From: Hymenopellis radicata
Taxonomy: Eukaryota > Basidiomycota > Agaricomycetes > Agaricales > Physalacriaceae
Assembly: GCA_015501595.1 (NCBI GenBank)
Contig: JADNRX010000041.1
Span: 124,001-188,000 of the forward strand
Length of the DNA stretch: 64,000 nucleotides
Reading direction: 5' to 3'
The notes under the pieces are model-generated. The model worked only from the letters and a program-made list of their open reading frames with translations. It made no database searches and had not been told where the DNA came from. Of this stretch, positions 5,124-63,765 are shown in pieces. Position numbers and translations under genes: made by a program. Position 1 is the stretch's first letter; each line of letters begins with the position of its first letter.

Positions 5124-5364
5124 TCCCGCCCGAAGGTAGACAGGCACGCGAGGAAACAGAAAAAACCAAGGTGGCAACCTTTCTCTCAATTGCAAGCATA
5201 CCGATGAGTCATATGTCTGTGGCTAGTGATGAGTTAGGAGAAGCAATTGCCAAGGTGTACGTACATCCAGGTCCGGTTGTGGCAGAGAAATCCACGTTAT
5301 AGAGAAAACCTAGAAAGCAAGATACCATACATGCGAAAACGTACAGTCACACGCCTACTGCCCG

Positions 5365-6480
5365 GTAGTCCTAAAAATGTTACTAACACGTCAATACCTT
5401 AAACACCGAATGGAACCACTAAGCCCCATCGGCGTGGCAGGCTACACTCCAGAGCAGGTTTACGGTGGACGTTGCGGGAAAAGAGCCTCCGGGTATTTCC
5501 GAGCACATTCACGAGGATCTTGCGCGCCGCCATTTCAACAAGAAGTCTAAGCAGGTCTTGACCTTCATGCCAGGCTGCTGTACTGACACTTCGTTTAGGA
5601 CTATCCACCATGTCACTGTCAGCATTCGACCAGAATCTATATCAAAAAACTGCACCTCGATAGGCCAGAAGGACGCGCTACCACTAAGCCACACGTCTTG
5701 AGCAAGGAAAACTGGGGTCCCGCTTGAAGACAAGAGGGTCGCGCGAATCCCAATTTGACAGAGGCTCCGTTGAGTCATGAAGATCAGAACGACATAGAAG
5801 ACACTTAGACAGCAAGCAAAACGATAACATGCGGCCACTAGCGACAAGCATAAAAAGATTTCACAGCTTTAATCCCTAGGGCCAATGCATCTGCTAGGAT
5901 ACACCGGCGTGCGTAGACTAAGTACCACCTAGTCATTATGGGAGAAAGCACAAGAAACAAGGAAAGAGCCAGAGTTGAGCAGGTCTCGTGAATTCCCGAG
6001 TCGTGGAGAACATAAGGAAACACATTCTGATCAGTTCTTCGACTGAAAATAGGAAACGCATTGTGATCAGTTGTTCGACTGACAACATAATCCAAAACAA
6101 TTTTCCGCGCGCGATTATTCATAGAGACGCGCTACCGGTAAGCGATGCGCCTCGAGTGTACAGCCTGAGGGAGAGATAGCAGTGGACGCCGTCAGAGGCA
6201 TGCAAAAAAAGCAAAGAAGACAGCTGGGAAGAGTCGATAGGACGCGGAACAGCTAAGCAACACGCCTCGAGCGGAACACGTCGCAGTCCGCGCTCAGGTT
6301 GATGGCAAGTTAGATATGGCACTAGAGCAATCGCCATGATAGGTGTAGTCGTTCCAGGTTTATACAGCAGGCAGAGAAGACCTAGGAAACAAAAAAGAGC
6401 CTATGCATTGACACAGTTTCATGGACACCTAATGCAACCACTAAGTCACATCAGCATGGCGGCCTGGAATCCAGAGTACA
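5365..6480 (-). repeat. Minus-strand array of tRNA-like cassettes (types 2,6,5,3,7,2)
   Basis: Read on the minus strand, each cassette has an A-box-like head, a unique insert, then a T-run. Heads lie near 6462-6436 (type 2, GTGACTTAGTGGTTGCAT), 6275-6250 (type 6, GTTGCTTAGCTGTTCCGCGT), 6150-6120 (type 5, ATCGCTTACCGGTAGCGCGT), 5912-5880 (type 3, GTGTATCCTAGCAGATGCAT), 5698-5672 (type 7, GTGTGGCTTAGTGGTAGCGC) and 5440-5411 (type 2). T-runs follow at about 6388-6383, 6210-6204 (T7), 5855-5851, 5649-5644 (T6) and 5377-5373. The same order of types recurs at 61.5-63.8 kb. No B-box (GGTTCGANTCC) is seen downstream of the heads, so these are not ordinary tRNA genes. Transcription is inferred, not shown. 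Confidence 0.6.
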
Positions 6481-14051: not shown

Positions 14052-14144
14052 TGGGGACACCCAGGATTGAACTGGGGACCTCCAGAACACCATACGTGGC
14101 TACGACACTTCATTCTGTTGCTCTCCCAACTGAGCTATGTCCCC
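14052..14144 (-). tRNA. tRNA-Phe(GAA), 20-nt intron
   Basis: Acceptor GGGGACA at 14144-14138. Anticodon GAA at 14111-14109, intron about 14107-14088, T-arm as in the sister copies, discriminator A at 14052. The base at position 32 is A rather than C. It forms a minus-strand pair with the copy at 13746. Confidence 0.92.
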
Positions 14145-14297
14145 ATACACTTGGTGTTCCCTCCTCCTCCTCCTCCTCGTCTCCGATTTCAATCCCACAG
14201 CGAAGTAAAGCAGAAACCACAACACAGACAAAATCAATAGAGCAACAAAACGACAGCACAGCACTATACGAGAAATCTAAAGTAGCAGGAATCTGTT

Positions 14298-16862: not shown

Positions 16863-17515
16863 CTGGATCGCCATAGGTGTGCTCGTTACGCCTTGGCTGT
16901 CGTGGTCTTGCGGCTCCTAGAGGCTAAAAGTCCGTGGTCCTTGAAGTCGATCCACCCCATCGACCAAGGAGGGGCGGCCAGATAAACGACCCGGAAGGAG
17001 ATGGAGCTGGCAGCAGGTAAAGAGCGACTTGGCGGACTTCGAAAAATTTGAAACCAACATGGCGTGATTGATGACATCATCACGCACACCAATCAATCAA
17101 TCAAAACGTTCAAGTCGGCGCCCTCACCCTCATCCTGTTCCAATCGTACATGTTCTGCCTCTTGCACTCAATGGTCATGTCTGCCTCGTGACTGGACAGT
17201 GGATCCTGGCTACTGCAAGGAAATGCTGCTTTCTCCATCTAGTACTGCCTCCGGGTCGGGGCTGCTTCCCGGCTGTTTACTGGGGACACGTTAAGCCTGC
17301 ATCGGAGGTCAATACCGGTTCTCAACTTTCGTTCTTCCTGTTACTGTAAATGGTATCATGTTGTGCACACAGTCTACATGGTGTAATCCTGTAAGTGCGT
17401 ATTGAGCCGTAATCGTGTAATCAGGCATAATACAGCTAAAATCATGATTTTTTTTACACCGAATTACGCACTTACACTGATTATGCCTAATTATGAGCCT
17501 CCGAACTTCCTGATG
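16863..17515. other. Unit-1-specific insertion, no gene seen
   Basis: The flanks (GGACAATACCAAAATCG before, CCTTTCTCAATCAAACTTTC after) are adjacent in the units at 27.1 and 51.9 kb. An inverted pair around GTAAGTGCG / CGCACTTAC at 17390-17475 suggests a mobile-element end. No intact reading frame. Confidence 0.5.
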
Positions 17516-17614
17516 TCCCTTGTCTCGTTCCCTTTCTCAATCAAACTTTCCACAATCAAACAAGCGCCTCGCGTCACGCACTGCAAGACCCAAGGCCTGC
17601 CGAGATAACCATGA

Positions 17615-18830
17615 ACTGTAGGCTGCCACGCCGATGTAGCTTAGTGGTTGCATGGGTGTTACAACGGCTATACGTTTGGTCAATCTTTTTGTGACTTGAT
17701 GCGCTTCCTAGGTATGCAGCCTGCAATTAAACTCTTTCGCATGCCAGATGGTAAGTCCCTTCTTCTCGACCGCGGCGTATGACCCACTGGTCGTATGCCT
17801 CGAATTCGTGAATGGGCTCCACTGTCTTTTTTATTTCCTACATCTTCAATAGTTCCACTGGCATACGCCGTCAAGACTCAAACCTAAGCGGTTCCACTCG
17901 AGGGGCGTGTTCTCTCTTTTGCGCGCGATTTCATGCCTCTCACTTGTACACTCGAGCGTCTTCATGAAATTTGCACGGAGTGCTAGGGATCCGAGGTCCG
18001 TTGACAATTTCACTACCGATGCTTCTTGTTCTTTCTCCCTAAGCAGTACTCTTCGCACGCCGGTGTATCCTAGCGGATGCATTGGCGCTAAGCATAGTCA
18101 AAGTGAAACTTTTTATGCTTCTAGCAGAGTGCTCGATTGTCTTCTTTATGAACTTTCACGCGATATCGCCAAGTGAAGCGGATCCAGCACTCCGAACTGT
18201 TCCTTCAAACAAATCATGAACCTACGGAACATGCAGGCGTCTGACCTAGCGGTTCGGCGGCTTGATGGCAACTTGAAAGACAGGCTTTTTTAATCGTCGA
18301 TGAACCCCAAGTCAGCAAATGGTGTGTACGATCTCTCCCTACATACTTTCCCGATGCTTACAATCGGAATCCCCAGTCCACACGCGGGCATTTGACCTAG
18401 CGGTTGAACAGCTTGATAATCCAATTCCGTGCAGCCTTTTTTGATATCATGGACTTTCCACCCCAAGTCGGCGTCTTCATACATGCTTTCCCGAGGCAAC
18501 TTTTTCGGTGGTATTCAGCCTAGAGGATCGTCTCTACTTCGTTTACTATACCTATTAGACATCCAATCGGAAACCCCCAGTCCACACGCAGGCGTCTGGC
18601 CTAGCGGTTTGACAGCTTGGTGAGTGAGAAGTTGAACGTCTATCTTTTTATTTCCATCTTCTTGTGCGACCCCAAGAGATATCTCTCTCCCTACATATGT
18701 TTCCGATGTCACTAACCACCTTGAGTGTAGACACCACACACAGGCGTCTGGCCTAGCGGTTCGATGGCTTGATGACAATGATAGTCTTTCCCGATGGAAC
18801 TTTTTCGCCCCAGCTAACCAACACACACAC
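17615..18830 (+). repeat. tRNA-like cassette array, unit 1 (types 2,4,3, then type 1 x4)
   Basis: Heads: type 2 GATGTAGCTTAGTGGTTGCA near 17632; type 4 TATGACCCACTGGTCGTATG near 17777; type 3 GTGTATCCTAGCGGATGCAT near 18064; type 1 near 18243, 18394, 18598 and 18749 (consensus TGGCCTAGCGGTTCGACGGC). A T-run follows each, for example 17686-17690, 17825-17830, 18110-18114, 18286-18291, 18437-18442, 18645-18649 and 18801-18805. Head and tail are shared by all copies of a type; the 15-45 nt between them are not. Type 1 units repeat about every 150-210 bp with a conserved linker (TCTCCCTACATACTTTCCCG, ACTTTCAACGTCGATGAACC). The head fits the Pol III A-box TRGYNNARNGG. Reading frames over the array are artefacts. 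Confidence 0.65.
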
Positions 18831-18883
18831 TTGAATCGTCTCGACTCCGTGAATCGTTTACTATGGGGCACATAGAAACACAT

Positions 18884-19542
18884 CGGGGGAAGCATATTTC
18901 CCTGGCTGAGGAAATAGCTGAGGAAAACGACGGAGGAAATTCAATTTCCTCAGTACGTTCCCGGGCCGAGGAAACCTGATTTCCTCGAATGGGGAAAGTT
19001 CTGAGGAAATCAAATTTCCTCGGCCGTTTCCTCAGCTGAGGTAAGCGGATTTCCTCGGTTGCTTTCGTAAGTGGCTTCCTCGGTGATTTCCTCAGCTGAG
19101 GAAGTTAGATTTCCTGAGCTGAGGAAATCACTGAGGAACTCAGATTTCCTCGTTGATTTCCTCCCTTGAGGAACTATAATTTCCTCAGTACATAAGAGTT
19201 TAAATATCATATTTATTGCCTAGTTTACACTTTAATAAAAAATCTATACTGAGGAAATACATGAGGAAATCATCAAGGAAATCTGAGTTCCTCAGTGATT
19301 TCCTCAGCTCAGGAAATCTAACTTCCTCAGCTGAGGAAATCACCGAGGAAGCCACTTACGAAAGCAACCGAGGAAATCCGCTTACCTCAGCTGAGGAAAC
19401 GGCCGAGGAAATTTGATTTCCTCAGAACTTTCCCCATTCGAGGAAATCAGGTTTCCTCGGCCCGGGAACGTACTGAGGAAATTGAATTTCCTCCGTCGTT
19501 TTCCTCAGGTATTTCCTCAGCCGGGGAAATATGCTTCCCCCG
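18884..19542. repeat. 659-bp near-perfect palindrome of nested GAGGAAAT motifs
   Basis: The two arms (18884-19200, 19246-19542) are inverted copies meeting at an AT-rich centre near 19205-19245. Within each arm, small palindromes such as TTTCCTCAGCTGAGGAAA recur every 20-50 bp. Identical reading frames appear on both strands because of the symmetry and are not genes. It resembles a foldback element. Confidence 0.85.
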
Positions 19543-19553
19543 TTGTGAAAGTG

Positions 19554-20899
19554 GCGGGAAGCCTAGCGGGATCGACCGCTAGCGGGAACCGCTACCCCGC
19601 TAGGCCCGCTAGGGTTACCGCTAGGCTCTCATTAGGGTTACCGCTAGGACCAGGGTAACTCAGCTTATGCGGCGGATTCATCCTAGCGTGTTGAAGTATT
19701 CTACTAGCTGTATGTAAAGACAATATAGTTACCTCTGTAGGTACTTATAGGAACTCGGAAAGAGTTGAAGTTGGCGAGTGAACATAGAAAGTGGGACTGG
19801 ATCGACTCGGAATGGACTTAGTACCTATATTCACCTCTACATTTCTGCGCCGTGATAGACGTCAGTTGCCCTACTCAGTATATGAAGGAAGGACTGTTGT
19901 TGAGATACATCTCGTCCCTCGAGATACTCGGAATTTGCTCGATTTGGCGCTGAGTTGAGGTACGGTCGACTAAGTCTTAGTTGAACACACAACACTTTTT
20001 CTTGCGCAACACAGAAACATCTGCACGACATTGCGACACGGTGCAAAGCTACCAGATGCTTTGAGTAAGTCCCGCTACACAATTCCCGCTAGCGATAAAT
20101 CCCGCTAGTTGTTTGTAAAGGTTTCCCGCTAGCGGGTCCCGCTACCCCGCTAGCCCGCTAGGTCTCGTTACCTTCCCGCTAGCGGTCTCGCTAGCCCGCT
20201 AACGGTCATCCCGCTAGACGTCTGGATATCCCGCTAGCGTGAAATCTTTGTCACGTATGATGCACTGAGGATAATCTCAAGCGCGATCAGATATGAATGC
20301 CGTGACGCGTCAACGTTTCAACGCATCTAACTTCGCATCATCAGTAATGATCTCATCCTGTTGTAAAGACAAGCTAAACCATTAGTGACTCCGAGCGACC
20401 ATAGGATGTTTCCTCAGACTTGGTCTCTTTCTCTCAGTCTCAGACGTCTGGCTGGCGCTGTCTACAGCGCGGTCGAGTTCCTGTCTGCCATCCTGTCCGG
20501 TGCGTAGTCACCGGTGTCTAGGGGTCATCTTCAGAATTCTGTGTCATGCACAAGGAGCAGGAATCATGCAACAAGTCAATCAGAGTCATCGATAGGCAGT
20601 GGGTATCCGGTCAAAGGCTTGCAGACAGACGTCTACTTGACAGTCACAACGATCAAGTACTTACATCGACATAGGACAATTCGTGACAGCGCGATGAAGC
20701 CGACAAAGTAACAGGATACAGAGCTCCCGTGAGAGCACTTAACAAGGTGAGGATAGCGCAGAGTAAACATATTCAACTTGAATTTCAAGGCCTACTACAT
20801 AAATTAGCGTTGGATGTCACAGCGTTACGACCGCTAGGACCAGAGTAATTCCCGCTACCCCGCTAACCGTCACTCCCGCGAGCACGCTAGGCTTCCCGC
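19554..20899. repeat. AGCGGG-repeat segment with inverted ends
   Basis: Both ends carry GCGGGAAGCCTAGCG in opposite orientation, and each end has many copies of CCGCTAGCGGG-like words (19555-19650, 20070-20245, 20825-20900). The middle (19660-20060, 20250-20810) shows no gene. It is possibly a separate element nested beside the palindrome. Confidence 0.6.
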
Positions 20900-20939
20900 T
20901 AAATTCTCTGGGCCCGTTTACTATGCCATCTAGATATCC

Positions 20940-21021
20940 AATCGGAAGCCCCAGTCCACACGCAGGCGTCTGGCCTAGCGGTTCGATGGCTTGATAGACC
21001 GCAAGAAATGTGGGTTTTTTT
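20940..21021 (+). repeat. Single type 1 tRNA-like cassette
   Basis: Head TGGCCTAGCGGTTCGATGGC at about 20971 with its own insert, then a T7 run at 21015-21021. It is the continuation of the unit 1 array after the 2.05-kb insertion. Confidence 0.65.
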
Positions 21022-21029
21022 AAATCCCC

Positions 21030-23065
21030 ATGAACGTTAAATGCAGAGCTGCCTTCGGCACGTGCCGGGCTAATCACCGACCGGCGAGTTCTTTCTCCAA
21101 CAGCCATCATCTCAAGTTTCAACTGTCTGTTTGTCGACTAATACAGTCAACCAATGCATCACATTCTGCGTCTTTTCTGCACCAGGTGCGTGTATGCAGC
21201 AAATGTCGCCTGTTTAAACTTCACACCTCACAATGACCATGTAAGAATAGGAAACATGCCTACTCTCAAGCGAAGACTGCGATGACCAGTCAACGCTCCT
21301 GGATCTGCCAAACGAATGCCTCATGCTTATACTTATTCTCCGAGCCACATCATCTCGGTTGGCACACTATGCCGACGCTTGCGTTCAATCATCACTTTTT
21401 CCGCCTGTCCCACCCCAAAATTATTCATTCATGATCCCTCGACATTCTATGTTGGGCGCTATCGGTCCACGCTTATGTTCATTCCACGCTATCCGACTTG
21501 CTCTTTTCGTGAAACCCTAGATCAATGCGTCTCTCGTTGTCCTCCTTCCCGGCCGAGGTGAGACAGATCACCCAATATTTTGATACCAGGCCGACGTTGC
21601 ATTCGGTGTCAGGACCAGCGGGTCTCGGGTGGTATAAGAGGGATGACCTGTCGCCTCAGGACCTGCGCAACAATCTTCTGACGTTGTGCGACCTGACGCT
21701 CATCGTATCAGACAGCGTTTACATGGGCGGCAAGGTATCCCCACCCGAGCTCCTTCCCCCATATGACGGACCCCTTCTTACGATGCCCCCGCTGTTTACA
21801 CTCTCCTACTGTCCTTACCTTTTCATACGCCCAATTGTCACCTGGAAGATCAAGTCGCTTGATGCCTCACGTCTCGAAGACGTCGATATCGGACCATACT
21901 TGCACGAATTGCGGCTAGACTCGCTGCAGTTCGCAGTCGCTCCGTTACCTAGACGCAACTGAATACTTTCTCATGTCGACATCCATTCATCGACCTCCGC
22001 ATTTCTTCAGAGAGAGCTTGGAGCCCAGCCCTTCCCAAGGTCAAGCAAGTCACAGAACCCTCGTCATTCTTTTCCACATGACTTTCTGTACCGCCTCAGG
22101 CTATCTGCGGGACGTACTTATAGAAGGCCCTCTGTGGACACATACTCTCTCATCTTCCGCCAACCGTGACCATGCTTCACCTGCCTCTCTACCGGCTCGG
22201 CGAATCCGATGAATGGTTGTCCCTGTTCATGGCAGAGCGATTTGAGACGCAGCGTGGGGCTGCCCTTCAGATGGCGCATGACGCAGCAGCGAATGAGGAG
22301 GATTGTCAACTCCGTGGCCCGGCTTCCCGAATTTGAGCGGGGACCAAACGACTTGGAGAACAGAGTTTTGGGGAATGTTGAACTTGGATTGATGTCCCGG
22401 GGTGAACTTGGAAGCCGTGTTTGATGGTGTGGTAAGTTGTTTCAGCGGCAGAGTGTACATTGACTGATTAATTGGGTACAGTGATCAGAGGCGATGTAGA
22501 TGAGCAGCAGAACGAGTAGGCGCGGTTTACTTAACTGGCATTGATCTACGTGGTGTGGTATCTCAATAGACGCTTGGTTCTTCCGACTGTGTAATCGCGA
22601 TCACTTCATTCCAAGGCTTTGCCACACTGCCGAGCGAACGGCTCCATCGTCCTTCCCAAACACAAATCCTCCAGCGTGGTGTGATGATCCCTTGACACGT
22701 ATTCGTTCAGTTGCTGACAAAGTCGTTCCTCAGAGCCACTTACCGCCAAACGCGCTTTCTCCTGTTTCACAAGCCGCTGTCAATGATAGGTCCAAGATCT
22801 CAAGCACAAGATAGCCGAGTCGCGGTCTTGCAAGAGAAATATAGGGAGTTGCGAGCGGTGAGCATGCCACTGGTGGGAGGCGGAACGCGTGTGCTGGACG
22901 AGGAAGGAAATGATGAGGATTTAAGCGCGCGGAGGAAAATGTAGGTGTTTGTTCTATGGTGCCAGCCATGATTGTCTGACGGATGCGCTCGTTCTTTCTT
23001 AGGAAGCACACATACCGGAGCGTCGGTGTAAAGTATGCGTTGCAGGACGACAGTGGATAAGGCGT
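21030..23065 (+). pseudogene. Degenerate F-box-like segment, copy 1
   Basis: A 2-kb block repeated at 45.06-47.33 and 54.87-57.11 kb. It opens with AACGTTAAATGCAGAGC, then a frame reads LLDLPNECLMLIL (about 21295-21335), which resembles an F-box start. Later frames read DLRNNLLTLCDLTLIVSDSVY, SLDASRLEDVDIGPYLHELR (LRR-like) and QRMRRIVNSVARLPEFE. These lie in different frames with stops between, and the three copies differ in indels, so none looks functional. Naming it F-box is tentative. A small intron-like interruption near 22440-22480 is shared by the copies. Confidence 0.4.
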
Positions 23066-23164
23066 TCAGCAACCGTTCTGAACATCAATCACTCTTCGGC
23101 CATAGTCAGCCTGAGGCTTGTGGACGTTCGAAGCCAGCAACCAGAGTCTGTTCGGAAATACCCA

Positions 23165-24320
23165 AAGTCCATCTAGATATTGAATCGCCAACCCGCATGC
23201 AGGCGTTTGACCTAGCGGTTCGAGGCGCTTCATCGATAGTCGGAGTATTGGTTTTTCAATCATGGACTTTCAACGTCGATGAACCCAAGTCTGCAGAGGT
23301 GTAAGTACTGTATCTCTTTCCCGATGTTCAGCTTGGAGGACGTCACTAACCAGGACACACACTTGAATCATCTCTAGTACTCCGTTTACTAGTACTATAC
23401 CATCATGATCTAGACGTCTAATCGGAACCCCCCCAGTCCACATGCAGGCGTTTGACCTAGCGGTTCGACGGCGCTTGATGATAGTACAGGACTTTTAATG
23501 TCAATGGAACCCAGGTCGGCATACATGAATGGTCTCCACTTCGTTTACCCATCATGATCTAGACGTCCAACCGGAGACCCCCAGTCCGCACGCAGGCGTT
23601 TGACCTAGCGGCTGGACGGCTTGATATAGCAGGGCGAGGGTTACTTTTATTTCTATCTTCTTCAACTGAGAGGGACTTTCAACCTCAAGTCGTCGACTAC
23701 AGCATCACTTTTTCGGCGGTATTCAGCTTGAATGGTATCTCTACTTTGTTTACTATACCATCATGAGCTAAATCGGAAACACGCAGGTGTTTGATCTAGC
23801 GGTTGGACGACTTGAATCAATGCGAGCAAAACAGGCTTTTTTCCTCTATCTTCTTCTGAGATGGACTTCTCACCCCAAATCGTTGACTACAGCATATACC
23901 TGGGTGTATTTTTCCGTACATACTTTCATGCTGTGACTTTGAGGTCACTGCTAACCACGCCACACTCGAGTCGGCTCTAACAACGTATTCAATCGGAAAC
24001 CCTCGTCCACACGTAGGCGTCTGGCCTAGCGGTTCGACGGCTGGATCAGAGAGCGAGGACATTAATACGCCTTTTTTAATCTTCTTCTGAGATGGACTTT
24101 CAACGTTAACATCGAAGAATCATAAATATGAGGAGTATCTCTCCCTACAATGCATACTTTCCCGTTCAGCGTAGAGGTCACTGCTAGCTACGGCACACTT
24201 GAATCATCTCTAAGTACTATACCTTCTAGACCGTATTATCGAAAACCCCACCAGGCGTTTGACCTAGCGGTTCGACGGCTTGATGGCGAGGCAAAAAAAA
24301 TGCATATGGCTGGGCCTTTT
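23165..24320 (+). repeat. tRNA-like cassette array (type 1 x6)
   Basis: Heads near 23209, 23454, 23603, 23790, 24023 and 24258; T-runs near 23253, 23492, 23656, 23837, 24071 and 24317. Insert lengths run from about 15 to 40 nt and share no sequence. The insert starting ATATAGCAGGGCGAGGG recurs at the matching place near 47660. Confidence 0.65.
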
Positions 24321-24379
24321 TTTGAACTTTCAACGTCGATACAGGCGTATCTCTCGCCCTACATACTTTCCCGATGTGG

Positions 24380-25080
24380 TACCGGGCGCCCTTGTTTGTG
24401 CTTTCGGCCTGAATCCTTGTTCTCCGCGGCCTCTACCAATGAAGACGTCCCATCAATAGGCAGCGAGTCACCATCGATCCCTCATTTCTTGCTATATAAC
24501 GTCCGACGCGCTACAGGCGCCGGTTTCTATCTCTTCACCCTACGTCCATTCATAAAGACATCAAGCAGCGCGTGACGCCACGATGGCGCGGATCTGCATG
24601 CCCTCAATATCACCTCCATCGTCCCTTCCAGGGCCGGTGCTTTTCTCTGCTTCTCCTTCTCCGCTCGCTTCGAAGTCCCGTCTCGCGCGGGCGCCAGTCT
24701 CCCTCAAAACAAGAGCCCAAGGCCGTCGATGGTCCTTATCTTCGCGTATACACTGTCAGTGGTCACGATGAGCGGCGTCTCCCCCACATTCAATGCTACC
24801 CCAAAGACTAAAGAATCCGGTTCCCCTTCATCGGGTCTGCATTCTTGTGGGGGAGCGCAGTCTCAAACACGAACGAGAGGAGAAGAGATGATATTGCTAT
24901 TCCTCCATAGTACAACTTACAAAAGGTTGATCTAAGTACACAGGAACACAACAACATCACACGTTTGAAAGAGAAAAAAATAGCTGAAAGAAAGAAATGG
25001 AAAATGGTGGATGGGGGAGCGGGGATGATGTATGACATTAAAACCCAAAAGTAACTGTACACCCGGAGAAAGAGACCAGA
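24380..25080. repeat. Conserved anonymous segment, copy 1
   Basis: Shared with 48400-49080 and 59500-60240 in the same position before the FKBP block. Landmarks are TTCCCGATGTGGTACCGGGC, CCCTCATTTCTTGCTATA and CTTCATCGGGTCTGCATTCT. Plus-strand frames (for example HFLLYNVRRATGAGFYLFTL) persist in two copies but lack a common start or end. It could be a decayed gene or the 3' region of FKBP12. Confidence 0.5.
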
Positions 25081-25159
25081 ACAACTTTTCGGTGGGATCT
25101 ATGGTGCAGTCAGCTATCGACGAATGCACGGAAAGACGTGCTACACACCTAGTTGATCT

Positions 25160-25605
25160 TGAGAAGCTCGACCTCAAACTTGAGAATGGCGTTCGCGGTA
25201 TCACAGGCGGGAATCCGCGCGATCCATACGCCTACGAAATAGTGTTAGATGGAGACGCGAACGGTGAGGCAGCGCGTATGGATGGACAACAATAGGGGCT
25301 CGGTGGATGGCATGGATGGGTCGGATGGAGGGAAAGATGGACGAGATGAACGACGCACATAATCCGGGGTCGCCGTCAATATCGCCTTCTCGCCCAAGGA
25401 CAGCTGTGGACACCTATCCAAAAGGCGCATCAGATCGCATCGCATCCATCGCTCGCGACGACGCGCAGCCAGCATCCAGCATGAGGAGCGTGCCCACGTA
25501 GTATATCGCCGCGCACAAAATCGCAAAACGCAAGACGTACCGCCCTTCTTCGGGAACGTGGCGCCATCGCCGGCCTCGAGAGATTCAACAGTGACGCCCT
25601 AACAC
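25160..25605 (-). pseudogene. FKBP12 pseudogene, unit 1 end
   Basis: Matches the intact gene at 60310-60984. The last exon is present ([19 protein letters not shown], with a base change and loss of one base near 25200), followed by [15 protein letters not shown]. Exon 4 and much of exon 3 are deleted and one base is lost beside the exon 5 splice site. At 25605 the sequence switches from FKBP exon 2 directly into Rab exon 3. Confidence 0.8.
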
Positions 25606-26010
25606 CGCGTCCGCGCGCCGGAAAAAGGCGGTGGATAAAGAGGAGAAACGTTCTTGCCCGGCTGTGTCCTGTCGCATGGCAGCCTTTAGCATAGAGAAGG
25701 ATGCAAAACGACGACGACGCACCCAAATCTGCAATACAACCTCCTCTTCCTCAGCCCCTGGGACGGTGATAGTCTTGCTGATAAAATCAGCACCGATAGT
25801 CGCCCGATATCCAGTCGAGAACCGCGAGGTGATGTACTATCCCGCGTCAGCTGAAGCGCGCGTCGAGGGCACACACACCCACACCTGACTCCGCAGACTC
25901 GTCTTGCCCACCCCCGACGCCCCAATGACGACCACTTTGATCGTGTGCTGCACCATCCAGCTCTGCGTTGTTCGAGCTTGTCCCTGTTTGATGCTTGCTC
26001 CTCGCTGAAT
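25605..26010 (-). pseudogene. Truncated Rab7-like gene, unit 2 start
   Basis: Contains exon 1 with its ATG and P-loop, exon 2 with switch I, and exon 3 only as far as FFRRADAV. It then runs into FKBP DNA and meets a stop within a few codons (GRHC then TGA). Splice sites are retained, so a truncated product of about 90 residues is conceivable, but G4, G5 and the prenylation site are gone. Confidence 0.8.
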
Positions 26011-26079
26011 CCCTTGCGCGATGCCGCCGTTCCTATCCTAGCTGGCGGGAACGCGAATAAATAAAACCAAGAGATGATG

Positions 26080-26640
26080 GTCGCACGTGGTGCCTCCTTC
26101 GCTGCCTCCCTCGCCTGCAAAGCCAAGCTCAGGACAACGAAGAAAAGCCGAGATAAGCGTAGACTCGATGCCAGTCGCTTCACCAAGCCGATCGGATCGT
26201 TGGCTCATACCTCCACAATATCCCTCGTGGTCTGCTCATGCGCCTTCTCACTCGTCCCCCTCACCTCCTCATTCCTCGCGCGAAGCAGCCTAACCTGGCC
26301 CTCCAACTCCTTCGACACCCTAACACGCTTTAAGAAGACATCGTTCTCGTGTAGGAGAGCCTAGGTCTTCGAGCGCTCGGCGCGGTACTTGGCTTTGTAC
26401 CTGTCTCCGCGGAGATGCGCCTCGAATTCGCGCTGGAGGATGTGCGGGTGATTTCCGCGGTTTTTTGTTGGGTAGAGCGGGGGAGGCGGGACGTTTGCGT
26501 TTGAGAGTGGGTGGTGGAGATGCAGGGGGGGTGGGGTATGGCGTCTAGACGAGAGCGTAAACGTGAGTGCCAAGAACACGACGAGTAGCACCACATACCT
26601 TGGCCTCGTTGGCTGAATAGCCTGGCATTTCCGTCTAGCA
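26080..26640 (-). pseudogene. Truncated coiled-coil gene, unit 2
   Basis: Equivalent to 15355-15860. Exon 1 (MPGYSANEAK), part of exon 2 (LQREFEAHLRGDRYKAKY) and the first codons of exon 3 remain. The rest of exon 3 and the two tRNA-Phe genes of unit 1 (about 13600-15355) are missing, so the exon abuts the Rab 5' flank. A 45-nt unrelated stretch interrupts the exon 2/3 intron near 26155-26210. Internal stops are present. Confidence 0.75.
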
Positions 26641-27214
26641 GCTGATCAGCACACGCCTAAATCCACGAAAAACGCACATACCAGGTTGTGTATACTGGGC
26701 GTACAATATCAAGAGGGAAAAAAATAGTATCCCAACACCCGTCCAGCTATTATACCCCCGCTGCATTGACCAGAGCGTGGGGACCCTCCATTGTGCTGGT
26801 GAAAGCCCGCGCGCGAGACAAGACAAATGCCCGGGCCCTGAGTCCAAGGGCGGGCCGCGTGTCCAAGTGATAACGAGATTTTGCGATCGCGTAAGGACCA
26901 AGGCATAGCGAGAGGGAACAAGGCAAGGACAAGAGCTGAGAAGGGAAAAGGCAAAAGGCAAGGTGGATGGGTGACGTGACGCGATCAGTCACACGCCCTC
27001 TGCCGCTAACCCTCGTTCTCATTGCACTTTGACCGCGTTCAGAATCCTATCCAAGACACTAATCGCGTCCAAGGACAATACCAAATTCAAACCGCTTCCT
27101 CGTCTCCTACCCTTTCTCAAGAAAACTTTCCCCAATCGAACAAGACTTCGTAGCACAATCCTTACAAACGCAGTGCAAGAGTCAAGGCCTGATCCATGAT
27201 CCCAACCATGAACT

Positions 27215-28345
27215 GCAGGCTGCCACGCCGATGTGGCTTAGTGGTTACATGGGGTGTTTGCACCTCTATTCGTCGATCTTTTTGTGACTTGATGCGCTTC
27301 CTAGGTATGCACTGTGCGACCAAACTCTTTCGCATGCCAGATGGTATCTTCTTCTCTTCCTCGAACGCCGCGTATGACCCACTGGTTGTCTGCCTCGAAT
27401 TCGTCGTATTGGCTATGGTCGTTTTTTTATTTCCTACATCTCGCCGTCAAGACTCAAACCCAAGCGGTTCCACTCGAGGCGCGTTTCTCTCTTTTGCGCG
27501 CGACTTCATGCCTCTCACTTGTACACTCGAGCGTCTTGCGTGGATTGTTTCTCGGTACTATGGATTCGAGTCGGCTTCTCGTTCTTTCTCCCTAGGTAGT
27601 GCTCTTCGCACGCTGGTGTATCCTAGCGGATGCATTGGCCCTATGCCGAACGCGTATTGTTTTATGCTTGTACTCATTGTCTTCTTTATGAACTTTCACG
27701 CGGTACTAGGGACTTGCGGATATCCAGCACTCTGAACTTTCCTCCAAACAAATTATGAACCTACGGAACATGCAGGCGTCTGACCTAGCGGTTCGGCGGC
27801 TTGATGGCAACTTGAAAGACAGGCTTTTTTAATCGTCGATGAACCCCAAGTCAGCAAATGGTGTGTACGATCTCTCCCTACATACTTTCCCGATGCTTAC
27901 AATCGGAATCCCCAGTCCACACGCAGGCATTTGACCTAGCGGTTGAACAGCTTGATAATCCAGGTCCGCGCACTGGCCTTTTTTGATATCATGGACTTCA
28001 ACCCCAAGTCGGCGTCTCAATACTACATGCTTTCCCGAGGCAACTTTTTCGGTGGTATTCAGCCTAGAGGATCGTCTCTACTTTGTTTACTATACCTACT
28101 AGACATTCAATCGGAACTTACCGCCAGTCCACACGCAGGCGTCTGGCCTAGCGGTTTGACAGCTTGGTGAGTGAGAAGTTGAACGTCTATCTTTTTATTT
28201 CCATCTTCTTCGAGATATGTCTCTCCCCACATGCTTTCCTGATGTCACTAACCACCTTGAGTCTAGACACCACACACAGGCGTCTAGCCTAGCGGTTCGA
28301 CTGCTTGATATGCAGTCAAGCGATAGAGATTTTTTAAATCCTCTT
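27215..28345 (+). repeat. tRNA-like cassette array, unit 2 (types 2,4,3, then type 1 x4)
   Basis: Same order as 17615-18830. Heads near 27230 (type 2), 27369 (type 4), 27618 (type 3), and 27780, 27928, 28144 and 28288 (type 1). T-runs near 27281, 27424, 27658, 27825, 27978, 28190 and 28330. The first and third type 1 inserts equal those of unit 1, while the type 2, type 3, second and fourth type 1 inserts differ. The fourth contains a perfect small hairpin (GACTGC-GCAGTC). Confidence 0.65.
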
Positions 28346-28498: not shown

Positions 28499-28700
28499 AT
28501 CTGGCTTCGGGCTTTTCAGGGAGTTTTGTCTGGCTTTTCCTAGTACTTGTCTGGCTTTCCTGCTACTTGTCTGGCTTTGTGGTTCCGGTCTGGCTAGTTG
28601 ATTTTGTGTCCGGCTTTTACAGATGACGTTTGGCTTGTATGGATGTTGTCTGGCTTTTCACACAGGGTGTCTGGCTTGTGCTCATACTGTCCGGCTTTGA
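28499..28700 (+). repeat. Left subterminal repeats, GTCTGGCTTT x about 10
   Basis: Copies of GTCTGGCTTT or one-base variants (GTCCGGCTTT, GTTTGGCTT, ATCTGGCTT) every 15-25 bp, all in one orientation. Such clusters are typical transposase-binding sites at DNA transposon ends. Confidence 0.85.
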
Positions 28701-44180: not shown

Positions 44181-44242
44181 ATTCTTTGGTTGATCAGAAG
44201 CCTCGACCAGTACTGCAAAGGTCAGATAGACACTTAGTACAA

Positions 44243-44524: not shown

Positions 44525-44945
44525 AAACCCCAATCCACATGCAGGCGTCTGGCCTAGCGGTTCGACGGCTTGATAGTGAAAACAGAGATCACATACACCT
44601 TTTTCAATCTTCTTCCAAGATGGACTTTCAACGTCGATGAGCCCGCTACAGTATAAATATGAGGAGTATCTCCCTACGTACTTTCCTCTAGACTATACAA
44701 TCGGAAAGCCCATTCCATGCGCAGGCGTCTGGCCTAACGGTTCGACAGCTTGATGGAGGGATAGGCAGCTGTTTTTATTTCCATCTTCTTCTGCAATCCC
44801 AAGTCGTCGACGGGATACGGCTCTGCCTACGTACGTTCCCGATGTCAGTAACCACCTTGAGTCTAGACACCACACACAGGCGTCTGGCCTAGCGGTTCAA
44901 CGGCTTGATAGCGGTGTAGTAGATAGGCATTTTTTAAAGATGAAC
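44525..44945 (+). repeat. tRNA-like cassette array (type 1 x3)
   Basis: Continuation of the unit 2 array after the 16-kb insertion. Heads near 44549, 44728 and 44886; T-runs near 44602, 44772 and 44931. The second insert closes a stem with its head (CAGCT...AGCTG) right before the T-run and equals the insert near 53465. Confidence 0.65.
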
Positions 44946-47449: not shown

Positions 47450-48365
47450 AGATGCAGGCGTTTGACCTAGCGGTTCGACGGTGCTTAGTGATGGTACAGA
47501 AGCACTGGTTTTTTTGAATCTTGGACTTTCAATGTCAATGGAACCCAGGTCAGCATACATGAATCGTCTCTACTTTGTTTACCCATCATGATCTAGACGT
47601 CCAACCGGAAACCCCCAGGCCACACGCAGGCGGTTGACCTAGCGGTTCGACGGCTTGATATAGCAGGGCGAGGGTTACTTTTATTTCTATCCTCTTCGAC
47701 TGAAAGGGACTTTCAACCTCAAGTCGTCGACTACAGCATCACTTTTTCGGCGGTATTCAGCTTGAATGGCATCTCTACTTTGATTACTACTATACCATCA
47801 TGAGCTACACATCCAATTGAAACCCCCAGTACACACACAGGCGTTTGACCTAGCGGTTCGACGGGTTGATGTCTGATTCATGGCGGCGGATTTTGTTATC
47901 CGATTCTTCTACAGTGAGATGGACTTACCACCCAAGTCGCATATGCCAGGGTGCAAAGTTTGTCCCTACAGACTTTCATGCTGTGACTTCGAGGTCACTG
48001 CTAACGACGCCACACTCTAGTCGTCTCTACACCGTATTCAATCGGAAACCCTGGCAGTCTACACACAGGCGTCTGGCCTAGCGGTTCGACGGCTGGATCA
48101 GAGAGCGAGAACAAATACAATAATACGCCTTTTTTCAATCTTCTTCTGAGATGGACTTTCAACATCGATGAATCATAAATGGGAGGATCTCTCCCTACAA
48201 TGCATACTTTCCCGTTCGGCGTAGAGGTCACTGCTAGTTACGACACGCTTTACTATACCATCTAGACCACTGCATACAATCGGAAAGCCCATTCCACACG
48301 CAGGCGTTTGACCTAGCGGTTCGACGGCTTGATAGGTATAACTTGACGGCCCTTTTTTGAACTTC
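47450..48365 (+). repeat. tRNA-like cassette array (type 1 x5)
   Basis: Heads near 47463, 47635, 47846, 48073 and 48309; T-runs near 47510, 47681, 47892, 48130 and 48353. The first has a clear covarying stem: GTGCTT in the head pairs with AAGCAC before the T7 run. Confidence 0.65.
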
Positions 48366-51964: not shown

Positions 51965-53660
51965 CATGAACTGCAGGCTGCCACGCCGATGTGGCTTAGT
52001 GGTTGCATGGGCTGTACATATGCAAGCTCGATCTTTTTGTGACTTGATGCGCTTCCTAGCTATGCACTGTTCAATTAAACTCTTCCGCATGGATGGTAAG
52101 TATCTTCGTGGATTCCAACTTGCACAGGCGGCGTATGACCCATTGGTAGTGCGCCTCGAATGAGCGAATGGTCCCACTGTCTTTTTTATGTCCTACATCT
52201 TTTGGGCGCGATTTCATGCCCCTCACTTGAACCTCAGGCCTCAGGCTGTACACTCGAGCGTCTTGCGCGGATTGTTTCTCGGTACTATGGATCCGAGTCG
52301 GCTTCTTATTCTTTCTCCCTCGGTAGCGCTCTTCGCACGCCGGTGTATCCTAGCGGATGCATTGGCCATAGGATAATGGGATGAAGTCTTTTTATGCATG
52401 TAGCAGAGTACTCATTTTCTTCCTTGTGAACTTTCACGCGGTACTAGGGACTTTTCCGATATCACCAAGTGAAGCGGATCCAGCACCGCAAATTATGAAC
52501 CTCACTTCATGACGGAACATGCAGGTGTCTGACCTAGCGGTTCGATGGGTTGATGGGAAGGATACTTCTGTTGGGTTTTTTAATCGTCGATGAATCCAAG
52601 TCAGTAAATGGGGTGTACGATCTCTCCCTACATACTTTCCCGATGCTTACAATCGGAATCCCCAGTCCACGCCCAGGCATTTGACCTAGCGGTTGAACAG
52701 CTTGATACTGCGTTTGAAGCTGTTTTTTTGATTTATATCATGGACTTTTCACCCCAAGTCGGCGTCTCCATACATGCTTTCCCGATGCAATGGTATTCAG
52801 CCTAGAGGTCACTAACTGAATCGTCTCTACTTTGTTTACTATAGCATCAATCAGAAACCGCCAGTCCACACGCAGGCGTCTGGCCTAGCGGTTTGACGGC
52901 TTGGTGAGTGAGAAGTTGAACGTCTATCTTTTTATTTCCATCTTCTTCTGCAACCCCAAGTTGACGACGAGATATCTCTCTCCCTACATATGTTTCCGCC
53001 TTGAGTCTAGACACCACACACAGGCGTCTGGCCTAGCGGTTCGACAGCTTGGTGAGGCGCTTCCCGAGAAAGATGCATTTTTTAAAATCCTCTTCCAAGA
53101 TGAACTTTCCACACCAAGTCAGCATATGTCAGGGTGTATTCATCCCTACGCTGGAACTTCTTCAGCCTAGAGGTCACTGCTAACCGCACCGTCTCTACTT
53201 ACCAGCTACTTCAATCAGAAATCCCAGCCCACACGCAGGCGTCTAGCCTAGCGGTTCGACGGCTTGATAATGGGAATGGATATCGAATATGCCTTTTTTC
53301 AATCTTCTTCTGAGATGGACTTTCAACGTCGATGAACCCGCTACAACATAAGGATGGGGAGTATCTCCCCCTACGTACTTTCCTCTACTTTACCATCTAG
53401 ACTATACAATCGGAAAGCCCATTCCATGCGCAGGCGTCTGGCCTAACGGTTCGACAGCTTGATGGAGGGATAGGCAGCTGTTTTTATTTCCATCTTCTTC
53501 TGCAATCCCAAGTCGTCGATGGGACATATCTCTCCCCACATACTTTCCCGATGTCAGTAAGCACCCTGCTGAGACACCACCCGCAGGCGTCTGGCCTAGT
53601 GGTTCGACGGCTTGATATGCTTGATAGTGTAATGTGTTTGGCGAGCCTTTTTTTGAACTT
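51965..53660 (+). repeat. tRNA-like cassette array, unit 3 (types 2,4,3, then type 1 x7)
   Basis: Heads near 51987 (type 2), 52135 (type 4), 52339 (type 3), and 52532, 52682, 52888, 53029, 53250, 53439 and 53591 (type 1). T-runs near 52032, 52181, 52389, 52575, 52724, 52929, 53078, 53295, 53480 and 53648. Compared with units 1 and 2, heads and tails match but most inserts do not. The insert near 52700 forms a perfect CAGCTT/AAGCTG stem before its T7 run. At about 53205 lies the empty site for the 16-kb transposon. Confidence 0.65.
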
Positions 53661-57224: not shown

Positions 57225-57545
57225 ACTCCAGTCCACATGCAGGCGTTTGACCTAGCGGTTTGACGCCCTTCGTATAATCAGAATATTGATTTTTTAATCA
57301 TGGACTTTCAACGTCGATGAACCCAAGTCTGCAGAGGTGTAAGTACTGTATCTCTTTCCCGATGTGCAGCCTGGAGGACGTCACTAACCACTTGAATCAT
57401 CTCTAGTACTCCGTTTACCAGTACTATACCATCATGATCTAGACGTCCAATCGGAAACCCCCCCCAGTCCACATGCAGGCGTTTGACCTAGCGGTTCGAC
57501 GGCGCTTAGTGATAGTACAGAAGCACTGTTTTTTTTTTTAATCTT
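57225..57545 (+). repeat. tRNA-like cassette array (type 1 x2)
   Basis: Heads near 57247 and 57484; T-runs near 57291 and 57530-57539 (T10 or more). The second insert pairs GCTT with AAGC and is a variant of the one near 47475. Confidence 0.6.
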
Positions 57546-58724: not shown

Positions 58725-59455
58725 CCCAGGCCACACGCAGGCGTTTGACCTAGCGGTTGGACGGCTTCATCATCAGGAACATGGAACATATCTATGATTT
58801 TTAAGTAGGATACAGTCAGCTGAGGCGAATATGGTTGACCTACGGTTAAAAAGTGTTGGAAAGTGAAAAGTTGACTTAACACAGAGTCCGGGGGTGGCGT
58901 TTGACCTAGCGGTTGGACGGCTTGATATCAGAGTCACGGTATTGTTTCCGCGTAGCCTTTTTTATTTATATTTTCTCCTGCCAGTGAGATGGACGTCCCA
59001 CCTCAAGTCGTCTACTACAGCATATGCCAGGGCCCAGGGTGTATTTGTCCCTACATACCTTCACGCTGTGACTTCGAGGTCACTGCTAACCACGCCACAT
59101 TCTCTGCTTACCATCTACACTGTATTCAATCGGAAACCCTCGTCCACACGTAGGCGTCTGGCCTAGCGGTTCGACGGCTGGATCAGAGAGCGAGAACAAA
59201 TACAATAATACGCCTTTTTTCAATCTTCTTCTGCGATGAACTCTCAACGTCGATGAATCATAAATATGGAGAGTATCTCTCCCTACAATACATACTTTCC
59301 CGTTCAGCGTCGAGGTCACTGCTAGTTACGACACGCTTTACTATACCATCTAGACCACTGTATACAATCGGAAAGCCCATTCCACACGCAGGCGTTTGAC
59401 CTAGCGGTTCGACGGCTTGATAGGTATAACTTGACGGCCTTTTTTTTGAACTTCA
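58725..59455 (+). repeat. tRNA-like cassette array (type 1 x4)
   Basis: Heads near 58747, 58901, 59157 and 59397; T-runs near 58798, 58957, 59215 and 59441. The last two inserts match those at 48090 and 48325, so insert replacement is not universal. Confidence 0.65.
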
Positions 59456-61484: not shown

Positions 61485-63765
61485 ACTCAGTCAACCATCC
61501 ACTGTGTCAATATTAGACCAGCATCTAAACCAAAAAAGCAGAGCGTTTTCTCATAGAAGGACGCGTTACCACCAAGCCACACGTCTTGACCAGAACGAAT
61601 TGATGTCCCACTTGAAGGAGGGACCCGCGAATCCCAATAAGACTCGCTAGCCTTTCTGTAACAGAAGACAACAAGCAAAACGTTACGCGATGCGGCCGCT
61701 AAGGCCAATGCATCCGCTAGGATACACCGGCGTGCGTAGACTACCACCTAGTCATCATTGGAGAAAGACCAAGAAACAAGGAAAGAGCCGGAGTTGAGCA
61801 GGTCTAGTGAATTCCCGAGTCACGGAGAACATTCTTCGACTGAAAACACAATCCAAAACAATCTCTTTAACCTCAAGAGCTATAACGACGCGCTGCCGTT
61901 AAGCGATGCATCTCGAGTGTACAGCCTGAGGGATAGATAGCAGTGGACGCCGTCACCGGAGGCATGGAATCAATGCAGGTAAAAAAATCAAAGACAGAAC
62001 AGCTATAGGACGCGGAACCGCTGAGCAACGCGCCTCGGGTAGACAAGGTCGCAGCCCGTACTCAGCTTGATGAGGAGTTGGATATGGCAGGAAGTAGTTC
62101 CAGGTTTACACACCTCGTAGGACAGCAGAGAAATCGACGTTAGGGAAGACCTAGGAAACAAAAAGGCTCAAAGGTATACATTTACTTGCAGGCATACCGA
62201 TGAGTCATACGCCTGCGACTGACGATGAGTTCTTCACCGAGAAGCAATTGCCAAGGGTGTACGTAGTTCCAAGTCACGCCTCGCACGTCCACGTTAGAGA
62301 GAAGACCCGGGATGGGTCGCACACCTGCAAGCAACACTGTACCTTTACACCAATCTGAAGAGCCAAATGGACGACGAGCCTAGTCGACCGCCGAAGACGC
62401 GTATGCTCGTAGGGTACGCGGTTCAAGTACATAAGGACGGGTGACGACAGAAATACTGACACGAAGCAGAATGTCAGTAAGAGAGTGACTGACAACGCAC
62501 CTAGGATGCAGTAAAGGCTGGAGAATGCGACACCACGATCTTCACTAAAAGGGAAACGCGTCGCCGAAGCAGACGACATGTATAGGTAGCCAAAGGCATG
62601 GCACCAAAGGTAATCAAAAACAAGTGGGAAGAGCGTCCAAACACCTGATGGACCCACTAAGCCACATCGGCGTGGCAGCCTGGAATCCAGAGTAGGTTCA
62701 TGACTGATGACAGTGCGGGAAAAAGAGCCTACGGGTATTTCCGAGCACGTTGACGAAGAAGAAGAAGAATGACATCCCAGTGATTGGCACTTCAATCACC
62801 GAGTTCTGCACCACATGTTCGCACAACAAGTCTAAGCACGTAAAAAACGAAGGTGTCGACATTCATGCCAGGCTTCTGTACTGAGACTTCGGTTGGGACT
62901 GTCCACGATGTCACTGTCACTGTCAGCATTGGACCAGAATCTATATCAAAACTTCGACAGCATAACAGAGAAGAAGGACGCGCTACCACTAAGCCACACG
63001 TCTTGACCGATGTCCCGCTTGAAGACAAGAGGGACGCGCGAATCCAACTGACAAATGCTCGCTAGCCTTTCTGTCGAGTCATAAAGATCAGAGCAACGTA
63101 GAAGACAGCAAGCAAAATGATTACTTGATGTTGCCGCTGAACGACAAGCGTAACACGCATCAACAGGGCCAATGCATCCGGTAGGATACAGCAGCTGTAC
63201 GAAGATTACCACCTAACGATCATTGAAGAAAGACCAAGCAAGACACAGGGAAAGAGCCAGAGTTGAGCGGGTCTAGTGAATTTCTGAGTCGTGGAGAACA
63301 TCAGGAAACGCAGTTCTTCGACTGAAAACACAATCCCCACGATTTATAAAGACACACTGCCACTAAGCGATGCGCCTCGAGTGTAGTACAGCCTGAGGGA
63401 GAGATAGCAGTAGACGCTGTCATCGGAGGCATGGAATCAATAGAAAAACAAAAAAGAGAGACCCTGGGCCGACAATTCATAGGACGCGGAACAGCTAAGC
63501 AACGCGCCTCGAGTAGAACAGGTCGCTGTCCGCGCTCAGGTCGATGGCGAGTTAGATATGGCACTAGAGCAATCGCCATGCTTGGCACTGATAGGTGTAG
63601 TCGTTCCAGGTTTATACAGCAGGCAGAGAAGGCCTAGGAAACAAAAAAGAGGCTATGGATTGATGCGTTCTTCCTAAACACCTAATGCAACCACTAAGCC
63701 ACATCAGCGTGGCAGCCTGGAATCCAGCGTACGTTTATGGTTGATGGTCATGGTGCGGGAAAAGA
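61485..63765 (-). repeat. Minus-strand array of tRNA-like cassettes (two rounds of types 7,3,5,6,2)
   Basis: In window order, heads: type 7 near 61561-61590, type 3 61700-61735, type 5 61890-61915, type 6 62010-62040, type 2 62648-62685, then again type 7 62976-63003, type 3 63165-63195, type 5 63355-63385, type 6 63480-63513, type 2 63683-63715. On the minus strand each is followed by an insert and a T-run, for example 61537-61532 (T6), 61987-61981 (T7), 62617-62613, 63455-63450 (T6) and 63646-63641 (T6). The tail GATATAGATTCTGG is shared by the type 7 copies at 5640 and 62950. The order equals that at 5.4-6.5 kb. Confidence 0.6.

What the first reader, a model, noticed from the sequence alone, without database searches (positions are those of the whole stretch)
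17615..28345. Conserved A-box-like head, hypervariable insert, T-run: a possible new class of short Pol III genes
Across the window about 50 cassettes share one plan: a head that fits the Pol III A-box (TGGCCTAGCGGT, TGGCTTAGTGGT, ATCCTAGCGGAT, TTGCTTAGCTGT and others), a 15-45 nt insert, T4-T7 (sometimes more), and a conserved tail. Predicted transcripts of about 60-80 nt would start with a constant tRNA-like 5' part and end with a unique 3' part. At least seven unrelated head types use the same plan, which argues against simple satellite drift. No B-box at normal spacing and no cloverleaf exist, so they are not tRNA genes. Alternative: a tRNA-derived repeat family in which the linker simply evolves fast.
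Basis: partly seen in the sequence, partly recalled or inferred. Interest (0 to 1): 0.88.

Follow-up and report, generated by a model that had tools for sequence, protein, structure and literature searches.

The report
Fungal short-RNA genes with swapped tails
A mushroom genome carries clusters of what look like very short RNA genes that begin with the same kind of hairpin but end in a 20-30-letter stretch that, between duplicate copies, is often either kept exactly or wholly different, a pattern that matches no RNA family tested here and may be an unrecognised set of guide-like RNAs.

Summary
The window holds 63 A-box-like heads of eight types, 21 inside 17615-28345; 62 of 63 have a T4+ run within 45 nt (random positions 14%). 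Each type can form the same hairpin, 5-6 bp around an A-box loop, and the stem covaries: 86.0% of cells paired against 60.9% shuffled; over the eight types 45 of 48 pairs against 33.25, P=0.0006 (0.017 without the two look-alike types T6 and T7). Further clusters on C500, C529, C696, C752 and C766 largely keep one gene order, T2-T7-T4-T8-T3-T5. Between colinear duplicates 34 of 62 inserts fall below 0.6 identity (background 42 of 361) while 16 are at 0.95 or more. In one near-identical 2-kb pair, one insert of ten is wholly different. No B-box, no Rfam match in the stretches scanned; six inserts tested have no convincing second home in 75.5 Mb. Best reading: a multigene family of short, probably Pol III-made RNAs with a constant 5' hairpin and a guide-like 3' segment. 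Transcription, polymerase and targets are undemonstrated.

The parts
17629..17690 (+). cassette type T2 (A-box 17637)
17772..17832 (+). cassette type T6 (A-box 17780)
18058..18114 (+). cassette type T3 (A-box 18066); T5 run here, T4 in most T3 copies
18234..18291 (+). cassette type T1 (A-box 18242)
18385..18442 (+). cassette type T1 (A-box 18393)
18589..18649 (+). cassette type T1 (A-box 18597); insert identical in 28144 and 52881 although flanks diverge
18741..18805 (+). cassette type T1 (A-box 18749); the same place in the other two blocks (28285, 53029) has other inserts
20963..21021 (+). cassette type T1 (A-box 20971), single
23200..23256 (+). cassette type T1 (A-box 23208)
23445..23496 (+). 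cassette type T1 (A-box 23453)
23593..23648 (+). cassette type T1 (A-box 23601); insert identical in 47635
23784..23842 (+). cassette type T1 (A-box 23792)
24014..24077 (+). cassette type T1 (A-box 24022)
24252..24323 (+). cassette type T1 (A-box 24260)
27226..27283 (+). cassette type T2 (A-box 27234)
27367..27428 (+). cassette type T6 (A-box 27375)
27611..27663 (+). cassette type T3 (A-box 27619)
27773..27830 (+). cassette type T1 (A-box 27781); insert identical to 18242
27924..27984 (+). cassette type T1 (A-box 27932)
28136..28196 (+). cassette type T1 (A-box 28144)
28277..28335 (+). cassette type T1 (A-box 28285)
44542..44935 (+). block of 3 T1 cassettes (A-boxes 44550, 44730, 44885)
47455..48358 (+). 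block of 5 T1 cassettes (A-boxes 47463, 47635, 47846, 48074, 48309)
51984..53654 (+). block T2-T6-T3-T1x7 (A-boxes 51992, 52136, 52346, 52530, 52682, 52881, 53029, 53244, 53439, 53592)
57240..57539 (+). 2 T1 cassettes (A-boxes 57248, 57484)
58738..59447 (+). 4 T1 cassettes (A-boxes 58746, 58902, 59159, 59397)
5160..6456 (-). array of 7 cassettes, read on the minus strand T2-T4-T8-T3-T5-T2-T7 (A-boxes 6448, 6260, 6145, 5901, 5691, 5426, 5211)
61532..63709 (-). array of 11 cassettes, read on the minus strand T2-T4-T8-T3-T5-T2-T7-T4-T8-T3-T5

Best explanation
The cassettes are a clustered multigene family of short non-coding RNA genes in an agaric fungus. Each gene would give an RNA of about 54-71 nt: a constant 5' hairpin whose loop doubles as an internal Pol III A-box, then an 18-35 nt unique segment, ending in the T-run. 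The hairpin is the shared handle, perhaps bound by one protein, and the unique 3' segment carries the specificity, most simply by base-pairing with a target. Some inserts are kept and others replaced outright. Shown: shared head, covarying stem, T-run position, recurring gene order, inserts that are wholly different or identical between duplicates. Inferred: transcription, its start, Pol III as the polymerase, termination at the T-run, replacement as the process behind the differences, pairing function.
For: A-box-like loop with a T-run 36-57 nt from the A-box in all but 6 of 122 heads. Covarying stem in 93 aligned heads: 86.0% of cells paired against 60.9 (sd 1.5) shuffled and at most 51.3% when slid, both-side changes at all six pairs; over eight types 45 of 48 pairs against 33.25, P=0.0006, 0.0012 with the worse T6 copy and 0.017 without T6 and T7. 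Recurring order T2-T7-T4-T8-T3-T5. Inserts less alike than background in 12 of 13 block pairs; inserts under 0.6 identity differ with Ts:Tv 51:96, as unrelated letters would. Pair C529/C752: 35 of 267 insert columns differ against 29 of 1760 outside, odds ratio 9, Fisher P=8e-16 (columns within an insert are not independent), from 3 of 10 inserts. Retention: the insert of 18597/28144/52881 is identical with flanks 64-86% identical. Inserts are not more structured than shuffled ones and slightly more unpaired (z 0.18, s.e. 0.08, 107 inserts). Piwi-domain matches exist in the genome.
Against: No expression data. No B-box, which type-2 Pol III genes normally have. T3 and T8 mostly have only T4, a weak terminator. 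The predicted stem forms with mean probability 0.47 in full-length folds, slightly below the shuffled-insert control at 0.49. No target found: six inserts of 112 unique ones tested, substitutions only. With fixed-offset windows further out, inserts are not significantly more divergent than flanks (P 0.08 and 0.12), though that comparison ignores indels. Several high-identity inserts also have high-identity flanks, so local conversion tracts may explain part of the bimodality. Conserved tails after the T-run are unexplained.
Confidence: 0.55

Rival explanations
1. Short Pol III genes whose 3' part is free to drift, with the drift speeded by transcription-associated mutation, so the insert has no specificity function.
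For: tRNA-Phe genes of the same region also have introns of differing sequence between conserved exons. About half of the inserts are near random-level identity between duplicates. In three of 13 block pairs insert identity is not heterogeneous.
Against: Within 10 of 13 block pairs insert identity is heterogeneous at P<0.01, with identical inserts beside unrelated ones; flank identity varies too, but the 18597 trio and 44730/53439 keep identical inserts with flanks at 64-86%. Flanks next to the cassettes are on average more alike than those further out and in about half of the 12 block pairs more alike than the rest, whereas transcription-associated mutation (recalled) also hits flanks. One insert is wholly different in a block whose non-cassette part is 98.6% identical.
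Confidence: 0.25
2. tRNA-derived repeats (SINE-like or satellite) whose linker evolves fast.
For: Heads resemble tRNA 5' parts with an A-box; the blocks arose by segmental duplication.
Against: No B-box. T1, T3, T5 and T4/T8 heads searched genome-wide lie in a few clusters (T2, T6 and T7 heads were not searched); the further weak hits in C587, C762 and C809 were read, show no cassette and give no model match, and a three-mismatch hit in C663 was not read. Recurring order of different genes; stem covaries.
Confidence: 0.08
3. A DNA-level element: the head hairpin acts as single-stranded DNA (recombination or break site) and the insert is repair filler.
For: A covarying hairpin constrains DNA as well as RNA; inserts differ en bloc with length changes, and both versions of one replaced insert are unique in the genome. 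An ORF with an integrase core domain (PF24764) ends 362 bp before the cassette block at 44542.
Against: The A-box consensus in the loop and the oriented T-run are not explained. No Pfam match in the three ORF readings tested from the L026 and L029 clusters, but only short stretches were held.
Confidence: 0.07
4. milRNA or siRNA hairpin precursors processed by Dicer.
For: The genome has Piwi-domain matches; Neurospora milR genes carry T-runs after the milRNA and depend on Pol III (PMC3547838, passages).
Against: Assuming the predicted ends, the insert has no complement in the transcript: folds are no better than with shuffled inserts. Outside cassette inserts, no antisense match of 12 nt or more to an insert was found in the window; insert against insert was not tested.
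Confidence: 0.05

Closest known systems
Dictyostelid Class I RNAs (PMC7919456, passages read)
   Same: 42-65 nt, many genes, a short stem kept by structure not sequence, a conserved 11-nt motif, the rest variable; said to be possibly Pol III
   Different: [quoted passage not shown] here the stem is a 5' hairpin around an A-box-like loop and the unique part is the 3' segment
Neurospora milR-1 to milR-4 (PMC3547838, passages read)
   Same: fungal, Pol III dependent, T-run directly after the small RNA
   Different: milRNAs sit in one arm of a precursor hairpin; milR-1 has no predicted A or B box and uses TATA-like elements; four loci named, not a clustered family
tRNA genes
   Same: A-box-like sequence near the 5' end, tRNA-like first 25-30 nt
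   Different: no cloverleaf, no B-box, shorter predicted RNA
CRISPR crRNA of the Cas12a type (recalled)
   Same: works-like comparison only: constant 5' hairpin plus unique 3' segment of guide length
   Different: eukaryotic, A-box-like element and T-run in each unit, no repeat-spacer array; PF07282 search of the genome empty

Membership tests
tRNA genes | cloverleaf | tested here: not met
   window; E<=1, two stretches
tRNA genes | B-box at normal spacing | tested here: not met
   131 cassettes
tRNA-derived SINEs | dispersed copies | tested here: not met
   T1, T3, T5, T4/T8 heads only in clusters; T2, T6, T7 not searched
tRNA-derived SINEs | A-box plus B-box promoter | tested here: not met
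tRNA-derived SINEs | target-site duplications | not tested
   not examined
Pol III transcription unit | A-box-like internal element | tested here: met
   sequence match only
Pol III transcription unit | T-run terminator (T5+) | tested here: inconclusive
   51 of 61; T3 and T8 mostly T4
Pol III transcription unit | Pol III occupancy or inhibitor-sensitive transcript | not testable with these tools
   no expression data
Fungal milRNA | small RNA within one arm of a precursor hairpin | tested here: not met
   inserts not paired beyond shuffled controls, given the predicted ends
Fungal milRNA | Dicer or Argonaute dependent small RNA | not testable with these tools
   Piwi-domain matches present; no sRNA data
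Dictyostelid Class I RNA | stem joining 5' and 3' ends | tested here: not met
   the supported stem is within the head
Dictyostelid Class I RNA | upstream DUSE | not tested
   not searched
CRISPR-like or Fanzor guide system | RNA-guided nuclease in the genome | tested here: inconclusive
   PF07282: 0 matches in own genome; divergent Fanzors could be missed
CRISPR-like or Fanzor guide system | guide matches a target | tested here: inconclusive
   six of 112 unique inserts against own genome and three 20-mers against viral contigs: none convincing; mycovirus coverage unknown
Any Rfam family | covariance-model match | tested here: not met
   whole window at gathering scores: tRNAs only, elsewhere; E<=1: none in window 17550-18800 or L029

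The most novel reading that the evidence does not exclude
A nuclear, genome-encoded repertoire of guide RNAs: a constant 5' hairpin handle plus an individually replaceable 20-30 nt guide, one promoter and terminator per guide, diversified against fast-changing foreign nucleic acids (mycoviruses, mobile elements) or used in self/non-self recognition, with an unknown process that writes new guide sequences between fixed borders.
Probability: 0.15. Interest if true: 0.95.

Novelty: categorically new. Interest (0 to 1): 0.8.

Why it matters
If transcribed, this would be an RNA gene family in mushrooms that matches none tested here, with 145 heads in the stretches read (122 if the C529 array is counted as the other allele of C752), whose variable ends seem to change by replacement rather than drift. 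Two questions become testable: what the unique ends recognise, and how new end sequences are written between fixed borders.

Tried and rejected
B-box up- or downstream in either orientation: sites with at most one mismatch not enriched. Insert structure: not different from shuffled except slightly more unpaired. Deaminase-like bias in part-diverged inserts: Ts 34, Tv 21 against 309:269 for whole blocks, P=0.26. Copying from another cassette as the source of a replaced insert: both versions of one replaced insert occur once each at up to three mismatches. Inserts matching the own genome outside cassettes, either strand: six tested, one 3-mismatch hit at C1351 whose reversed-pattern control gave two hits. 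Inserts in viral contigs: three 20-mers, none. Heads in viral contigs: T3 and T5, none. Fanzor-like nuclease by PF07282: none. Weak head hits in C587, C762, C809: read and rejected. Haplotypes C752 and C1252 across 17486-28322: almost only single-base indels plus one 672-bp insertion, so no information on inserts. Literature: searches showed nothing that described this family, judged from titles and abstract openings of the papers listed (20 of 41 listed, 15 of 16, 12 of 61); searches returned no paper; one search was on mutation at tRNA genes. The library holds open-licence papers only. Not tested: TATA or other upstream promoter motifs; pairing of one insert with another.

The comparison mixed in non-colinear block pairs (for example D-F1), where inserts and background look alike because most columns are gaps; replace it. 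One search left out some T4b heads, among them the wholly replaced pair; one search includes them. One search skipped background windows in which either copy had fewer than 12 letters, which favours conserved background. Block pairs in both calls share blocks (A, B, C; D, E, F2; M1; the C529/C752 stretches). From one search's own rows, seven pairs without a shared block (A-B, D-E, G-H, M1-M2, C529a-C752a, C529c-C752c, C500-C766) give 16 of 37 inserts and 19 of 206 background windows below 0.6. In one search the T6 representative was the better-pairing of two single copies and the T7 loop was set to 11 nt; one search shows the effect.
Full report
What is there. The window (C752:124001-188000 of a 75.5-Mb, 1405-contig assembly) contains 63 copies of a head that fits the Pol III A-box, 21 of them inside the finding's coordinates. 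Of the 61 cassettes tabulated, a T4+ run follows within 45 nt of the head in all 61 (random positions 14%) and T5+ in 51 (random 5%); insert lengths are 18-35 nt. Of the two heads outside that table, one has T6 at 24 nt and one has T4 at 49 nt. The copies are related by duplication, so these are not independent events, but each head type shows the T-run. A protein search with one window gene lists Mucidula mucida first (93% identity over 24% of the query), then Armillaria species (78-82%), so the source is an agaric, probably Physalacriaceae (family name recalled).

One fold behind eight heads. Aligning 93 distinct heads needs no gaps. They place the A-box in a 14-nt loop closed by a 6-bp stem; T7 fits with an 11-nt loop and was left out of that alignment. 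The stem pairs in 86.0% of cells against 60.9 (sd 1.5) in shuffles and at most 51.3% when slid by one to three columns; all six pairs have changes on both sides. Related copies inflate such counts, so I permuted the commonest arms among the eight types, T7 included: 45 of 48 pairs form, mean 33.25, exact P=0.0006. With the worse-pairing T6 copy it is 43 of 48, P=0.0012; without T6 and T7, whose arms are alike, 33 of 36, P=0.017. T4, T5 and T8 share a 3' arm, so even the types are not fully independent. Against this, in full predicted transcripts the stem forms with mean probability only 0.47, slightly below shuffled-insert controls (0.49). The covariation argues for selection on a hairpin; RNA is the natural reading, but single-stranded DNA is not excluded.

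Clusters and order. Pattern searches for T1, T3, T5 and T4/T8 heads find them in a few clusters: C500, C529, C696, C752 (near 121-130k, 141-188k and 227-236k), C766 and the haplotype contig C1252; T2, T6 and T7 heads were not searched genome-wide. Weak extra hits in C587, C762 and C809 were read and are not cassettes; one in C663 was not read. A model of the heads finds nothing in the cluster-free stretches held. The order T2-T7-T4-T8-T3-T5 recurs in C500, C529, C696, C752, C766 and the minus-strand arrays of the window, with members missing or extra in places; the inner window has a variant, T2-T6-T3 followed by several T1. The window, L016 and L025-L029 give 145 heads; L030 and C1252 are left out as near-identical copies. 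C529 and C752 may be alleles; without L026 the count is 122.

Inserts differ wholly or are kept. In 13 pairs of colinear blocks (57 cassette pairs) heads average 0.94 identity, flanks 0.80, inserts 0.69; inserts are below their flanks in 42 and above in 14 (P=1.3e-5). With aligned background windows, 34 of 62 inserts fall below 0.6 against 42 of 361 windows; shuffled inserts average 0.45 with a 95th percentile of 0.56. Mean insert identity is below mean background in 12 of 13 pairs (P=0.0005). The pairs share blocks; seven without a shared block, taken from the same rows, give 16 of 37 inserts against 19 of 206 windows, and all seven agree in sign. Fixed-offset windows give the same sign against the nearest flanks (P<0.001) but not significantly further out (P 0.08 and 0.12), where unmodelled indels lower flank identity. 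Of the 62, 16 are at 0.95 or more;'s rows 5 of these belong to the near-identical C529a/C752a stretch and 11 to other pairs. Insert identity is heterogeneous within 10 of 13 pairs (P<0.01), but flank identity varies as well, so conversion tracts may explain part. The clearest change is in a 2-kb stretch shared by C529 and C752: outside inserts 29 of 1760 columns differ, inside 35 of 267, all from 3 of 10 inserts, one of them different in 23 of 29 columns between nearly unchanged flanks. The other two lie near the end of the stretch, where background differences are also commoner. The clearest retention is the insert of 18597, 28144 and 52881, identical in all three with flanks 64-86% identical.

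Where new inserts come from. Both versions of that replaced insert occur once each in the assembly at up to three mismatches, so neither was copied from a surviving cassette. Four further inserts were searched and match only cassettes, apart from one 3-mismatch hit no better than its reversed control. These searches allow substitutions, not indels, and cover six of 112 unique inserts. Three 20-mers are absent from a viral contig collection. In the window, outside cassette inserts, no insert has a 12-nt antisense match and three have 12-nt sense matches, not set against a control.

How it most likely works. I infer a short transcript that starts a little upstream of the stem, carries the hairpin as a common handle, exposes the unique segment and ends in the T-run. 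Exact retention of some inserts beside wholesale change of others suggests that insert sequence matters, which drift alone does not explain well. The pairing partner and the writing mechanism are unknown. Piwi-domain matches exist, but inserts have no complement in their own predicted transcripts, so ordinary milRNA precursors are unlikely.

Comparison. The nearest in plan are dictyostelid Class I RNAs (PMC7919456, passages) and the Pol III milR genes of Neurospora (PMC3547838, passages); the passages shown of the fungal hairpin survey PMC9757828 mention no such family. Class I RNAs and milRNAs each fail a defining feature tested here. No Rfam family matches the cassettes in the stretches scanned.

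Limits. There is no expression evidence. G000 has no relatives among the genomes held, so conservation in other species is untested. Haplotype differences are mostly single-base indels, probably sequencing errors.

Noticed in passing
window 18875-19546: 672-bp insertion with long inverted ends, absent from the otherwise near-identical haplotype contig C1252: looks like a recently mobile MITE-like element.
   Followed up: partly
window 7218-7310, 12025-12111, 13746-13845, 14050-14145; L009, L016, L017: Several tRNA genes of the Phe type (one labelled Thr by ARAGORN) with near-identical exons but quite different introns.
   Followed up: partly
window 19559-20240 and 20830-20905: Dense repeats of a CCGCTAGCGG-type palindrome, seen by eye.
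   Followed up: no
window 28526-28700 and 44240-44345: Imperfect ~20-nt repeats built on TGTCTGGCTTTT, in opposite orientations at the two places.
   Followed up: no
window 43611-44180: ORF matching an integrase core domain (PF24764), ending 362 bp before a cassette block.
   Followed up: no
window 13150-13604, 25603-26085, 49734-50205: A segment that overlaps a Ras-family ORF (12271-13290) is repeated near the cassette blocks.
   Followed up: no
G000: C302, C1073, C945, C447, C1, C674, C1184: 18 Piwi-domain exon matches on seven contigs: several Argonaute genes likely.
   Followed up: no
L026 (C529) and L029 (C752): The number of six-gene modules differs between these two closely similar arrays.
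   Followed up: partly
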